Part shown: piece by piece, positions 1,121 through 63,466 of the stretch
How the letters are laid out: each line of letters begins with the position of its first letter
Numbering within the stretch: the stretch's first letter is position 1
The notes under the pieces: generated by a model
Seen by the model: only the letters and a program-made list of their open reading frames with translations
Database searches by the model: none
Told to the model about the DNA's origin: nothing
Source of the DNA: Mesorhabditis belari
Lineage: Eukaryota; Nematoda; Chromadorea; Rhabditida; Rhabditidae
Length of the DNA: 64,000 bases
Assembly: GCA_958450365.1 (NCBI GenBank)
Contig: CAUEEP010000927.1
Location: 976,001-1,040,000, forward strand
Direction: 5' to 3'
Program-made: the position numbers and the translations under genes

Positions 1121-4100
1121 TAACTCACTTGATTGCTCATATCCTCGACTCGTTGTACACGGGGTGTGTGCTGTGCTTTCGGAGATTGTAGATGTTCACC
1201 CGGCTTGACCACCATGTAATTGATCACATCGGCTAATGAGATGATACCCTGAAAAAGGTTAAGATTTGTAAATGGTTCTAGCTACAATCATCAATCAATT
1301 CTAAGAATATGGTTGATGATAAAGGTAAACTTGTGCCCTGTGCCCTATGCGCACACGCACAGGGCACAGGGCGATGATAAAGATAAACTTGTGCCCAGGC
1401 TCAGCTTAGGCTTAGGCTTAGGCTTAGGCTTAGGCACAGGGCACAGGGCACAGGGCGATGATAAAGATAAACTTGTGCCCTGTGCCCTGTGCGTGTGCGC
1501 ATAGGGCACAGGGCACAAGTTTATCTTTATCATCGCCCTGTGCGTTCTTTTGACGTCGCCCGTAAGGAAAAGCGGCATCTGGCGCATTGCCCTCAGTAAA
1601 GCGGCCGAAAAACTCCCCAAGCCGGTTTAATTACCCAAGACTGTCTCTCAGAAAGCTAGAGTTTTAGAAATGCTAAATTCAATTCGATTTTAGAAGTTGA
1701 ATCTGATAATGAATGTTTCTACTCACTTCAACTTGTTGGTGCTCATTCAGAACACACAATCGATGCACATTTCGATCAACGAGCACTTGAACGGCCGTCC
1801 AAAAGGTATCCGTTGTGTTGATCGACACCACCATGCTGGCAAGATTCTAGAAATGGAAAATAAATTTAAAATTGATATCTCATGAACAGATTAGCTTACT
1901 TTGTTAAAATTCTTGAAGTCAAGAGCTGATTGAACGGATTTTTCCAATCGATTTGGATCATTATCGGTGGCAATAGCGATTGCATCAAATCGAGAGTACA
2001 TTCCGATCATCTGAAGCCATTTGAAATGTACATAGTACGATCAAGCAAATACATAGTACGACAAGAAGTACAACTAGATTCTTATCTGAGAAAGAAACCT
2101 TTTTTGTTTCCTCATCGACAACAGGGACTCCAGAGATGTTCTGAGTGCTGAGTATTTCGAGGCATTCATGCAATGGAGTGCTTGGGTAGACCTGAAGATT
2201 CTTTTAGCATTACTAAATAGAAGATTGGATAACAATTGCATATCTAGGCTGAAAACGGAAACAATTTTTAGCTTAAACCAACCATTTTCAAGTTTTCCCA
2301 AGTGCCTACTCCAAGCACTCGAGGGGTTTTCACGTGATATTCGGGTAGAGAGAATTGAGTACCCTAAAAAGAAGTGAAATTTTTTAAATCTAATAGAGTT
2401 TTGGAATTTAAAATAAAAGATTCAAGATTTAGTGGCACTACGGGGAGTCGAACTCGACACTACCGGCGGGCCGTATGGGACGTGAACAACCCCACTCCCG
2501 ACTGCACCAGGGCGACATGACAGCAAGCCGGGAAAAACCCGCTGATTAACCTGCTAGGCTGATTTTCAGCTGGTTTCCATAGAATAAGAAATACTGGTAT
2601 CTTATCTTTAAACTTAAAACTCACAAAGCACCACAAAAATTTGAGAATTCTTTTGTGGGTGATGATGAAGAGAGGACTGCCCTCTATTGGATCCATTACA
2701 GGTAAACGATGAATTCGATATTTCGCAAGAAGACGAGCCGCTTCAAGGATACTATAAGAGTTGGTAATTTATAAAAGAATGAACATGATTTTTCCCTTTA
2801 AAAAAAGGATCAATTAAGACGAGTTGGAAGAGTTTTATGGGTGATGATGAAGAGAGGACTCTTCCCCTTTTTCCCTTTTTCCCTACCTTTGATTGGCATC
2901 AATTGAGACGAGTTGGAAGAGTTTTCCCGATGATTCGACAAAGTCTAAATAGTTATCAAGGCTTAAAACTTGAAACTGATAAGTGTGTTCAGAAATACTC
3001 TAAATGTAGACTCATAAGAAATACAACAATTACAGGTTTGTAAGACAGGAAAATGTCAATCCAGAGTTGACTTTCTTTAGATATTTTCCTTTAGAACAAC
3101 TCCACAAACCTCTATATTGTCGAACAGTCATATTTCCAATGTCATTGCAATCAACTTCGTGCTCACTCGGCACACCCATAACCTCTCTAAAACCTTTAAA
3201 CTTAATTCGAATAACAGATTTTAACGATCATTTATAAACACTTTTTACAGTACTCACCTATATTTCATCAAGAGTACTCTGATGAAATCAGTGACCGAGA
3301 GGATCCCCGAGATCTTCCCTCCATCACCACCGCTTGAAATCAAAACATGACGAGTATCTAATAATTGAAATATCGGAAATTCTTAGATTGGTTTCATCTA
3401 AAACTTGAATTCGAATAGCTTTCCAATAGATCTACATTACTGGATCTACAGTTTGGTTTTACAGTTTAGTTTCTAATATTGAAAATTTGAACACAAATCA
3501 AATCCTATCTTCCTTTTCTCAACATTTCTTGTTCTTAAATTTTATCTACAATCTACAGTACTGGACAATGAAATATGATATTTGAAAAAACGATCGTCAC
3601 TTTCGCGCGTCTGTAACTCCCTTGTCTTTGAGTTTAAACTATTAGTGTTATACATTTTCTGAAAGCTCTTTTCAAGGGCTATACAATGGTAATATTAATA
3701 TTTAGAAATACGGTAAAGACAAGGGAGTTACAGACGCGCGAAAGTGCGAAAGTGTTTTTCAAATATGATATTTCATTGTCCAGTACTGTAGGTTGTAGAT
3801 AAAATTTAAGAACAAGAAATGTTGAAAAAGGAAGATAGGATTTGATTTGTGTTCAAATTTTCAATATTAGAAACTAAACTGTAAAATCAAATACTGATCT
3901 AATGTAAACTGGTTTCTTTAGAGCTTTGCTTGTATATTCTCAAAACTTACTCTGATAGATCAATCCATTAAAGGCTTTCTTCATCAAAAGATCCTTATCA
4001 AATACAACCATTTTGCTGCTCGTTGGCATTGCCTGTAAACTTAGAAAATCTCGGAAAATATAACAGAAATAGGAGAATGATTTAAGAATTCACAATTAAA

Positions 4101-58520: not shown

Positions 58521-59413
58521 TATTAGGTTGTTCGGATATAAACGAGCGTTTGCACTGCTTAACTCGTGAGGAAGCCATTTCCTGCATCTGATCGCCTTTC
58601 CAATGGCGCGGAGATGCTCATCAATGGTAGAATTTGAACATAGAAATTGTTGCGCAAGCTCACGCGTCGTTTGACATGGATCCGATTCGATTGCAGCCCT
58701 CAAAATATCGTTGTCTACCGCTTGAGGTCGACCAGAGTGTTCATGATCCTCGAGACTTTCATCACCGTTCCGAAAGCGTTGGAACCAGGCTTGGCAGCGG
58801 CTTTCGAACAATACATCATTCCCAAATGCTTTGACCAAATCTCAATGGGATTCCGTTACTGTTTTGCCCAGTTTGAAGTCGTAAAGTAGGCAGAACTTGA
58901 TATACAGTACCGGACAATGAAATATCATATTTGAAAAAACGATCGTCACTTTCGCGGGTCTGTAACTCCCTTGTCTTTGAGTTTAAACTATTAGTGTTAT
59001 ACATTTTCTGAAAGCTCTTTTAAAGGGCTACACAATGGTAATATTAATATTTAGAAATACGGTAAAGACAAGGGAGTTACAGACGCGCAAAAGTGACGAT
59101 CGTTTTTCAAATATCATATTTCATTGTCCAGTAGTGTATTTGAAGTCGGTCATCTAAAGCTGAAGTCGGTCATCGAAAGCTGAAGTCGGTCATCTAAAGG
59201 TGAAGTCGTAAAGTAGGCAGACGCGAAACTGATATTTGAAGTCGGTCATCTAAAGCAAGAAAAAAAAGATCTTAATAATAAGAAATTATCCATTTAAAAA
59301 GATTCCAAATATACACAAGATAACGTATTGTTAAATACAGAAAGACATATTTTAAAAGCTTCTCTCACAGCAATAATTTTAGTAACGCTTCTTTATATCC
59401 GAACAACCTAATA
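58521..59413 (-). mobile_element. Mariner remnant keeping the N-terminal transposase
   Basis: Ends TATTAGGTTGTTCGGATATA and complement, with TA. The minus strand (about 58895-58560) encodes YDFKLGKTVTES, MVKAFGNDVLFESRCQAWFQ, the linker GDESLEDHEHSGRP and the second HTH (TTRELAQQFLCSNSTIDEHL), typical of mariner N-termini. The DDE/DDD part is absent. A TACTGGACAATG-family MITE (58913-59138) has inserted into it. Confidence 0.85.
58913..59138. mobile_element. TACTGGACAATG-family MITE inside the mariner remnant
   Basis: Ends TACAGTACCGGACAATGAAA and TTTCATTGTCCAGTAGTGTA; arms contain ACGATCGTCACTTTCGCGGG and the central GGTAATATTAATATTTAG. Followed by four AAGTCGGTCATCTAAAGCTG-type tandem units (59149-59252). 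Confidence 0.85.
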
Positions 59414-60649: not shown

Positions 60650-63466
60650 ATGGCGATGGAGGACTTTCGGGAAAAAATCGTCGGAAATTTTCGAATCGAG
60701 GACAAGAGTCTTTTAAGGGAATTGTTGGCTGAGATGATTGGCACTTTTATGTTAGTGGTGAGTGAAAGAGATCTAAAACTTAAACTAAAGTCAATTCAAA
60801 GTCATATTCATCTTGCAATCTTGCATTTTAGTTTATCGGAACCTCAGCAAACGTTCAAGGTGCAATGCCTGGCGGAGACGCTGCTGTGGCGACGATCGCT
60901 TGGGGAATCGGGTTCATGTTTGCCGTTTATTTGGCAGCCAGTGTTTCTGGTGAGATTCGAAAATCGATTTTCAAGTAAAAGTGTGAAGAAAACAAGCACT
61001 AATATTAAATAAAGATACAAGATTTGAGAATGTAATAGCCTTGAAGTTGATTTGAGAATGTATTGGGTTGGGGAGAATGAGTCGGCGCCGAAAATCAAAA
61101 AAATGTCTAAAACTTCTATTCGACTTCGTCAAATAATATGCGTTTGATATCAGTAGAATGGTTAACTAATTCTCTACAAAATGACATTTAAAGAAATACA
61201 GCGCCTCCGGCAAGAAAAAGCCACAAAAAACTACAAAGTCATCTAGAAAAAAGGGCTCCTGCAAATTTAAAATTGAACCCTCCCTTTTATATAAACAAAG
61301 AAGGTTTATGGAAAACTGTTCAAAGAGTCGGGTATAAACTCCAAGAAAAGAAAGTTTGGAACTCTCAAAAGTCATTTTGAGAAAATATGAAGCAGAGTTA
61401 AGAAATTAAGGGTTTGTGAAGGTTAGGGTCCCTTAGGGTGCGGCGGGCACCCCCCCAACCTAACTAAAGCAAGTTGTAACATGTTTATATATATATATAG
61501 TATTCTCTCTAATAGTAGTGCGCACTACTATTTTTTCAACTCCCTCCCGGACCGCAATACTATTAGAGAGAATACGGCATATGCTTTATTCAGTTGAATA
61601 GCGACAAAACAAAATCACAATAATTACCCGGGACATCACGCAAATCACACCCAAAAGAGAAATACACTACTGGACAATGAAATATGATATTTGAAAAAAC
61701 GATCGTCACTTTCGCGCGTCTGTAACTCATCTATATTTTATCAAGAGTACTCTGATGAAATCAGTGACCGAGAGGATCCCCGAGATCTTCCCTCCATCAC
61801 CACCGCTTGAAATCAAAACATGACGAGTATCTAAAAATTGGAATATCAGAAATTCTTAGATTTGTTTCATCTAAAAATTGAATTCCAATAGCTTTCCAAT
61901 AGATCTACAGTACTGCACAATGAAATATGATATTTGAAAAAACGATCGTCACTTTCGCGCGTCTGTAACTCCTGTGTCTTTGAGTTTAAACTATTAGTGT
62001 TATACATTTTCTGAAAGCTCTTTTCAAGGGCTACACAATGGTAATATTAATATTTAGAAATACGGTAAAGACAAGGGAGTTACAGACGCGCGAAAGTGAC
62101 GATCTTTTTTCAGATATCATATTTCATTGTCCAGTAGTGTAGATACCTCAAGAAAGAATCACAGAGCAGTCAAATCAATTGCCGAAATTGCGGCTTTAAA
62201 TCTAACATATACAATAAAGATGTACTAGCTAAATCTAGCCAAGGTGGGAATATCACGAACATGAGGGGGAAAGGGTTCCAGAATTTAATAACTCGATTAA
62301 AAAAGAAACTGTGGGAGCTTTTAGAGGAAACGGAAGGTTGGCGTATGAGAAAAGGCCCCCTTTCAAAGATAAATCCTTGTTCAAAAGTAAGATAAGAATT
62401 AATGACTTTTCTAAAATCCAGGTGGTCATCTCAACCCTTCAATCTCCTTAGCGCAATTGATTCTCGGGAATCTGTCAGCTGGAAGAATGTTAAGTTATTG
62501 GATTGTTCAAGTGATTGGCGCTTTTCTTGGCGCTGGGATGACTTGGTTTGGGCATTTTGGTAAGAAAAATCTAGAAAAATCTAGATCTAGACAAAAACCA
62601 AATCTAGATGATCTTCGATATTTGGGATCCGGTGAGAAAGAGGTGATTGGAGGGAATGCAACGGCTGGCCTCTTTGCTACTTATCCAACCGCTCATATGA
62701 GCACCTGGGGAAGTCTCTTCGATCAGGTAAAGCTGAATTGAATTGAAAGCTTACTTTAGAACTGAAAGAGCAGTTTGCCATTAGCCCAATCGATCTTAAG
62801 AGCTGGTTAATAAGATTTTAAAGCCAAGCATTCAGATCATTGGTACAGCTCTCTTGTCTGGGCTTGTTTGCTTGATCACTGATAAGAGACACAAGATTCC
62901 ACCAGGTTTCATTCCACCACTTGCTGGCACAATCATGACAATGGTGAGACAAGAAAAGCACAATAAGCAATGTATTTTTAACTGATTACTCCAGATTGCT
63001 GGTACTTATGGTAGCAATGGTGGTTTTGCAATCAACCCTGCTCGAGACCTCGGTCCAAGACTCTGGCTCCTCTGTGCCGGTTATGGAGGAGCTGCTTTCA
63101 GGTAAGATGTCCAGCCTTGTCAAGGATTCTGTACACTTAACAAATATTGAATTTATCAAGATCTAAATCAAGTAGTACATAATCTTTCAATATCCTTCAG
63201 CGCCCATTCCTTCTATTTCTGGATTCCGCTTGTTGGACCAATCATTGGAGCGATCATCGGTGAGTAGTAACAATAAGATCTATAATCTAACAATAAGATC
63301 ATTTCTAGGTGCTTGGATCTACAAGGTTTTTGTTGGGCTTCATGGTGGGATGGATTCAATTGAGGTTACGAAATCCTCAGAAACTCAAAAAGGATATCAA
63401 GTCAGTGTCACTTCACATCACGAGCATTACAAAAACCCGAACTACTCAAGTCCTAGGGGTAATTGA
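60650..63466 (+). CDS. aqp: Aquaglyceroporin (MIP family)
   Basis: Channel for water and glycerol. Starts MAMEDFREKIVGNFRIEDKS; TM1 LLAEMIGTFMLV and FIGTSANVQGAMPGGDAAVA; TM2 IAWGIGFMFAVYLAASVSG; first half-helix GGHLNPSISLAQLILGNLSA with NPS in place of NPA; TM3 YWIVQVIGAFLGAG; loop with EVIGGNATAGLFATYPTAHM; TM4 IIGTALLSGLVCLITDKRHK; TM5 IPPLAGTIMTM; second half-helix GGFAINPARDLGPRLW; TM6 FYFWIPLVGPIIGAIIGAWI; then a Ser-rich tail ending 63466. The Asp after NPAR is the known mark of glycerol-permeable members. Eight exons; the intron 60952-62419 carries at least four repeats, including an AMPK-gamma exon copy. Short upstream repeats may affect expression. Confidence 0.92.
61061..61385. 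mobile_element. Truncated TATTGGGTTGGGGAGAATGAG element
   Basis: Matches the left half of 43998-44706 from its terminal TATTGGGTTGGGGAGAATGA on, with many small internal deletions; the right terminus is missing. In the large aquaporin intron. Confidence 0.75.
61500..61577. mobile_element. 75-bp CGTATTCTCTCTAATAG MITE, second copy
   Basis: Sequence and flanks (GCATATGCTTTA, AGCGACAAAACAAAATCACA) match 57410-57540, so the two loci share about 150 bp beyond the MITE and are related by duplication. Confidence 0.8.
61663..62141. mobile_element. Compound MITE carrying an AMPK-gamma exon
   Basis: Left: one arm of the TACTGGACAATG family (61663-61725). Middle: 61726-61909, a copy of AMPK-gamma DNA 3252-3440 (the exon 3258-3357 plus intron). 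Right: a full TACTGGACAATG element (about 61906-62141). The exon copy 61731-61830 differs from the gene at one base I can see; its donor site is changed from GTGAGT to ATGAGT. Confidence 0.9.

What the first reader, a model, noticed from the sequence alone, without database searches (positions are those of the whole stretch)
61663..62141. AMPK-gamma exon captured between two MITE copies and moved into the aquaporin intron
The 100-nt exon at 3258-3357 and 80 nt of its intron reappear at 61726-61909 with one visible exon change. The piece is joined on the left to a single MITE arm at the shared bases AACTC and on the right to a full MITE at the shared bases GATCTACAG, with about 110 nt of the source intron missing. 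In the source gene the same MITE family lies 200 bp from the exon. The simplest reading is a composite unit (MITE - gene piece - MITE) that was mobilised or formed by template switching in the palindromes. The donor is lost, so the piece probably is not spliced in.
Basis: seen in the sequence. Interest (0 to 1): 0.87.

Follow-up and report, generated by a model that had tools for sequence, protein, structure and literature searches.

The report
MITE repair copied an AMPK exon
In the nematode Mesorhabditis belari, a short mobile DNA element in an aquaporin intron holds a copied piece of a neighbouring gene that lay beside another copy of the same element, most likely because a broken element was mended from its sister copy and the copying ran on into the gene.

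Summary
Window 61725-61905 copies AMPK-gamma exon plus intron (3252-3432; 8 differences in 181 nt), and 61665-62139 (475 nt) is a TA-bounded unit: truncated MITE arm, gene piece, full MITE. One paralogous repeat shows the empty site with a single TA. The genome is Mesorhabditis belari.
A third locus on the same contig (C703:1,170,004-1,170,307) has the same AMPK-intron|MITE junction but a shorter arm and piece. The '110 nt missing' is not a loss in the copy: the source gained an inverted copy of its own right flank across its MITE. A fourth locus holds the opposite AMPK flank beside a MITE. In 40 sampled MITE loci, 7 show arm-X-MITE, all 7 arms pointing outward. Of 8 traced X donors, 6 have X directly beside a MITE (2 of 4 within the sample).
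Best explanation (inferred): a break inside this palindromic MITE was mended from another MITE copy; synthesis overran the donor MITE's end into its flank and rejoined the recipient arm. This is a variant of known Pack-TIR gap filling, with the donor marked by a MITE. Unit transposition is not excluded. The exon lies antisense in the aquaporin intron.

The parts
61663..61664 (.). left TA target-site duplication
61665..61728 (+). truncated MITE arm (64 of ~232 nt), terminus outward; last 4 nt ACTC shared with the gene piece
61725..61905 (-). copy of AMPK-gamma exon and intron (source 3252-3432), gene sense on minus strand, antisense to the aquaporin gene
61906..61907 (.). TA at the piece|MITE boundary, same junction as the third locus
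61908..62139 (+). full palindromic TA-inserting MITE (hairpin z = -18)
   Evidence: the fold was made on 61907-62139
62140..62141 (.). right TA target-site duplication
60950..62421 (+). aquaporin intron 2 that holds the unit
   Evidence: MIP domain
3258..3357 (-). source AMPK-gamma exon (100 nt)
3433..3444 (+). likely remnant of the original left MITE end in the source (11 of 12 nt), at the TA where both copies carry the MITE; it can also be read as part of the inverted copy
3452..3553 (-). inverted copy of the source's own right MITE flank (start approximate)
3556..3788 (+). MITE in the AMPK intron (present donor locus)
3791..3891 (+). right flank that was duplicated inverted; the flank to 3947 is also found beside a MITE at C549:345,041-345,214 (81%)
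58905..59137 (+). another plain MITE of the family in the window (approximate end)

Best explanation
A plain MITE sat at a TA in the aquaporin intron. It broke inside one inverted-repeat arm (hairpin, fork stall or attempted excision). One end paired with the homologous MITE in the AMPK-gamma intron 58 kb away, copied through that MITE's end and on into its flank (75 nt of intron, the 100-nt exon, 6 nt beyond), then was released and joined to the truncated recipient arm at ACTC. Result: arm-X-TA-MITE. The same donor MITE served at least once more (third locus), and a similar event with the palindrome pairing to itself would give the inverted flank duplication in the source. Shown: anatomy, shared donor junction, variable arm junctions, an empty paralogous site, recurrence, donors with a MITE. 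Inferred: the break, the strand invasion, the pathway (homology-driven synthesis ended by polymerase-theta-like joining) and that the recipient MITE was there first.
For: Two AMPK-derived units share the X|MITE junction exactly but differ in arm (64 vs 33 nt) and piece (181 vs ~32 nt). Their MITE bodies are no closer than other family members (95.3%, rank 31 of 57). Source: inverted right flank on the left of the MITE, 98%; C549 holds the right flank beside a MITE at 81%. Survey: 7 of 40 loci accepted by eye, 7 of 7 arms outward; by script 9 arms, 9 outward, 0 inward. Donors: 6 of 8 traced have X running into a MITE or MITE arm (AMPK, inferred for its ancestral state from the two copies; L091; L028; L032; L041; L098). 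Serial mosaic L017. L044 and L049 share X and its two junctions, but the MITE bodies lie in opposite orientation. Arm|X joins: 5 of 9 share 2-4 nt, 4 of 9 have 1-8 nt inserted (no chance control). Both AMPK copies lie on the donor's contig.
Against: The single arm begins CACTACTGG, the usual RIGHT-end form (42 of 58 right ends against 3 of 58 left ends), so both outer ends of the unit look right-type; a plain repaired MITE would be expected to have one of each. It is one base. 2 of 8 donors lack a MITE at the boundary (L086: TA only; L095: join not at a MITE), and within the unbiased sample it is 2 of 4. The unit [half MITE-X2-MITE] appears with the same outer boundaries at two unrelated sites (L018/L039 and L040), which unit transposition would also give. 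No outgroup allele with a plain MITE in the aquaporin intron was available. Outward arms are also expected under rival models.
Confidence: 0.55

Rival explanations
1. Template switching made the composite elsewhere (at or near AMPK) and the finished TIR-bounded unit then transposed to the aquaporin TA (the FoSTeST model of Tan et al. 2021). The third locus would be an internally deleted sibling.
For: Outer TIRs and TA/TA with an empty paralogous site; a composite unit at two sites with the same outer boundaries (L018/L040); L044/L049 share both X junctions; both outer ends right-type.
Against: Third locus: different arm length, source-like at the two diagnostic bases it covers, MITE body no closer than average, right flank TG instead of TA. 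Copying from a composite donor could also multiply units.
Confidence: 0.28
2. Hybrid element from two neighbouring MITEs: MITEs once flanked the AMPK exon; deletion of the inner end of the left one gave a Pack-like element that moved (the Pack-CACTA model described for Arabidopsis in PMC13317346, section 7).
For: Same outward arm orientation is predicted; MITE-Y-MITE pairs exist at two loci (L021, L044).
Against: No MITE seen on the exon side of the source; needs an insertion a few nt from a splice donor plus loss; does not explain the third locus or the inverted flank in the source.
Confidence: 0.09
3. Assembly artefact or tandem AMPK paralogue.
For: The assembly holds haplotig-like duplicate contigs (C4 with C711).
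Against: 8 differences in 181 nt, distinct flanks with a TA empty site, third locus, one exon copied. Reads were not available.
Confidence: 0.03

Closest known systems
Pack-TIRs by gap filling in animals (Tan et al. 2021, PMC8277862; sections 4, 7, 8, 9, 12, 14 read)
   Same: Non-TE sequence inside a TIR element with TSDs; microhomology at breakpoints; cis bias; breakpoints inside the element; P-element gap repair as precedent.
   Different: Here one junction is the donor MITE's own end plus TA. Their pipeline excluded parental copies with TEs in the flanking 100 bp, so donors with an abutting MITE, like five of ours (L091, L028, L032, L041, L098), were left out by design; today's AMPK source lies 121 nt from its MITE. 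[quoted passage not shown] 7 of 40 here under looser criteria, not directly comparable.
End bypass / transduction of TIR elements (as described in Tan et al. 2021)
   Same: DNA next to the element is taken along.
   Different: End bypass uses a chance downstream end in transposition; here the far end is a truncated arm of a real MITE.
Pack-TYPE elements, Pack-CACTA transduplication in plants (PMC13317346: section 7 and passages read; PMC8903248: search listing only)
   Same: Gene fragment between TIRs, usually non-functional.
   Different: Hybridisation of neighbouring elements does not fit the source locus.
Turmoil-1 transduplication in C. elegans (PMC2572040, search listing only)
   Same: Gene pieces in a nematode DNA transposon.
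   Different: There inside the ITRs of one element; here flank pieces scattered over many copies of a MITE.
Polymerase-theta end joining of Tc1 breaks in C. elegans germ cells (PMC4490562, passages read)
   Same: Microhomology and templated inserts at transposon breaks.
   Different: Not tested in Mesorhabditis; our inserts include long ectopic tracts.

Membership tests
Tc1/mariner-type MITE | TA target-site duplication | tested here: met
   TA beside 57 of 58 left and 53 of 58 right ends of unique full copies; empty site
Tc1/mariner-type MITE | short palindromic element, high copy | tested here: met
   ~232 nt, fold z -18.0; 2076 forward and 2071 reverse arm hits
Tc1/mariner-type MITE | ends shared with an autonomous Tc1-like transposon of the genome | not tested
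Pack-TIR | non-TE sequence >100 bp flanked by termini of one TIR family | tested here: met
   181 nt between arm 61665-61728 and MITE 61908-62139
Pack-TIR | identifiable parental copy, >=90% identity | tested here: met
   95.3% to 3252-3442
Pack-TIR | parental copy without TE within 100 bp (Tan et al. filter) | tested here: inconclusive
   X ends at the TA where two copies carry the MITE, so the ancestral source would fail the filter (inferred); in today's source the MITE lies 121 nt further, behind the inverted copy, just outside 100 bp
Pack-TIR by gap filling | orthologous plain TE without capture in an outgroup | not testable with these tools
   no Mesorhabditis relative genome held
Pack-TIR, multicopy by transposition | same chimeric junctions at sites with different TSD context | tested here: not met
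   third AMPK locus shares only one junction; other units, L018/L040, do share theirs

The most novel reading that the evidence does not exclude
This MITE family works as a genome-wide flank-copying network: roughly one sampled locus in six is a mosaic, many of them made when ectopic MITE-to-MITE repair overran a donor MITE's end and carried its flank (exon, intron, tRNA-like repeats) to another MITE site, sometimes serially, so palindromes spread gene pieces without needing transposase.
Probability: 0.35. Interest if true: 0.75.

Novelty: new variant of a known kind. Interest (0 to 1): 0.5.

Why it matters
Several models compete for how TIR elements acquire gene fragments (gap filling, hybrid elements, fork switching). 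Here donors are themselves marked by a MITE at the exact boundary, and one donor has given several products of different identity (81%, 95%, 98%), so template and rejoining point can be read from one genome. Donors with an abutting TE were filtered out of the main animal survey. Mesorhabditis belari is a nematode in which population and repair tests are thinkable.

Tried and rejected
Assembly artefact or AMPK paralogue: rejected (divergence, empty site, third locus). Outer palindrome in the source as a separate MITE family: first assumed, dropped because C549 continues past it into AMPK intron. Deletion of 110 nt in the copy: disfavoured, two copies share the short form and the long form is an inverted repeat of the other flank. 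Exonisation: the public M. belari protein P0001 and M. spiculigera P0002 run through the exon 2/3 join without extra residues; no RNA data. tRNA genes in captured X: sequences look tRNA-like but ARAGORN found none in 9 loci. Second allele of the aquaporin site: the exon part of the query hit only itself among 40 scored of 382 candidates. An autonomous partner was not searched for. In the survey, L047 and L052 passed the script but were dropped by eye: old scrambled MITE, and local internal duplication. L074/L076 look like two copies of one structure and L044/L049 share X, so the 7 loci hold 5 distinct X; donors of L074/L076 were not searched. C29:150 was left out of the sample (contig edge). 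X1 of L017 includes a dispersed repeat (positions 19-152; of its many other hits, the two looked at, L031 and L033, have no MITE), so its donor rests on the rest of X1 and its MITE boundary, found at L028, L029 and L030. The paper on DNA elimination (PMC13370393, passages) was looked at and not used.

Full report
What is there. The window is G000:C703:976001-1040000 of a 207.6-Mb assembly. A hand-spliced aquaporin matches a Mesorhabditis belari protein at 98% (93% covered) on a contig of 2,050,382 bases, the length of C703, so the host is this nematode. The exon at 3258-3357 belongs to an AMPK-gamma gene on the minus strand (three joined exons hit AMPK gamma-1 at 2.5e-10; the CBS match stays below Pfam's cut-off). 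The aquaporin (MIP, 1.4e-44) is on the plus strand; its intron 2 (60950-62421) holds the finding. The exon copy is therefore antisense to it.

Anatomy. TA (61663-61664) - arm 61665-61728 - gene piece 61725-61905 - TA - full MITE 61908-62139 - TA (62140-62141). The right flank belongs to a high-copy repeat (46 matches, 40 scored of 382 candidates). Of three repeat copies compared, one on C542 reads through the site with a single TA, two (C545 and the one in L020 on C703) read TG at that place: an empty paralogous site. The MITE is a ~232-nt palindrome (fold z -18); TA flanks 57 of 58 left and 53 of 58 right ends in the 58 unique full copies I aligned, mean identity 93.2%. An arm pattern with up to 2 mismatches hits 2076 times forward and 2071 reverse, so about 2000 copies, inflated by duplicate contigs.

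The gene piece in the genome. Three places: source, aquaporin copy, and C703:1,170,041 (L020/L002). The third has a 33-nt MITE arm, one inserted base, ~32 nt of AMPK intron, and a full MITE, with exactly the same ...CCAATAGATC|TA|MITE junction. I infer that this junction is the original insertion site of a MITE in the AMPK intron. In today's source the same TA (3433-3434) is followed by what looks like 12 nt of MITE end (11 of 12 match; it can also be read as part of the inverted copy) and then by an inverted copy of the flank on the other side of the MITE (98%). C549:345,041-345,214 carries the right AMPK flank, beyond the duplicated part, beside a MITE, at 81%. Identity suggests the order: C549 oldest, the aquaporin copy next (95% overall; 7 of the 8 differences lie in the 81 intron nt), the inverted duplication youngest.

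Is it general? 34 of 40 hold a full copy. By eye 7 of 40 (L044, L049, L056, L072, L074, L076, L082) show a truncated arm, about 100-300 nt of other sequence X, TA and a full MITE; they hold 5 distinct X. The script rule gave 9 arms, all pointing outward, none inward. Outward arms and TA at the inner boundary are also expected if two neighbouring MITEs suffered a deletion, so donors matter. I traced 8: AMPK; L091 for L044/L049; L028 and L032 for the two X of L017; L041 for L018; L098 for L056; these six have X running into a MITE or MITE arm (for AMPK in the ancestral state inferred above; for L017 X1 also L029 and L030). L086 (for L072) has the TA but no MITE; L095 (for L082, 2.2 kb away) joins away from any MITE. 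L017, L018 and L032 came from the first searches, not the sample; within the sample the count is 2 of 4 donors. L017 is a chain arm-X1-20 nt of MITE-X2-MITE with two different donors.

Joins. At arm|X, 5 of 9 joins (L044 and L049 being one join) share 2-4 nt, 4 of 9 have 1-8 inserted nt; I ran no chance control. Several copies also carry local duplications (L047, L049, L052). This resembles polymerase-theta joining described for Tc1 breaks in C. elegans germ cells (PMC4490562, passages).

Mechanism. A constant X|MITE junction with a variable arm|X junction is what repair of a broken recipient MITE from a donor MITE, with overrun, predicts. Unit transposition of a finished composite explains the aquaporin site equally well taken alone, but needs an internal deletion for the third locus and says nothing of the source's inverted flank. 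Against repair: both outer ends of the aquaporin unit carry the base typical of right ends, and another composite (L018/L040) appears at two unrelated sites with the same outer boundaries. Both processes may run in this family.

Known or new. Tan et al. 2021 (PMC8277862) described Pack-TIRs in animals and gap filling; they excluded parents with TEs in the flanking 100 bp and said they may miss end-bypass cases, where the TE is linked with the parent. Novelty searches: Pack-TIR, Pack-mariner, 'MITE-mediated gene capture', 'chimeric MITE' (3 papers); MITE, nematode, captured gene fragments, Tc1 (4); MITEs with strand annealing (2); template switching, palindrome, gene fragment (31, 15 listed); transposon duplications (69, 20 listed); end bypass, gene capture (297, 20 listed); one search was off target. 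Judged by titles and abstract starts, I saw no report of this anatomy; only an open-access library was searched. I rate it a new variant of a known kind. The effect on the gene product is probably nil: public proteins skip it.

Noticed in passing
L044 1144-1276, L049, L074, L082 (captured X): Several captured segments contain tRNA-like or SINE-like stretches (A-box and GGTTCGATTCC motifs, recognised from memory); ARAGORN calls no gene.
   Followed up: partly
C4 and C711; C50 and C687; C13, C503 and C706: Small contigs duplicate stretches of large ones at up to 100%: likely uncollapsed haplotypes, so copy counts are inflated.
   Followed up: partly
L047 1080-1440; L091 1880-2000: MITE interiors or ends interrupted by repeated GCTCCAG-like insertions, as if the palindrome broke and was patched again and again.
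   Followed up: no
L044 1277-1864 and L021 1409-2006: A MITE-120 bp-MITE pair occurs at two loci (C4 and C711) with different left contexts, a composite that seems to have been copied whole.
   Followed up: partly
window 2657-2678 and 2839-2860: A 22-nt motif GGGTGATGATGAAGAGAGGACT occurs twice near the AMPK exon, with GAGTTGGAAGAGTTTT repeats nearby.
   Followed up: no
window 61503-61575: Another palindromic repeat (ATTCTCTCTAATAGTAGTGCGC...) lies in the same aquaporin intron just left of the unit.
   Followed up: no
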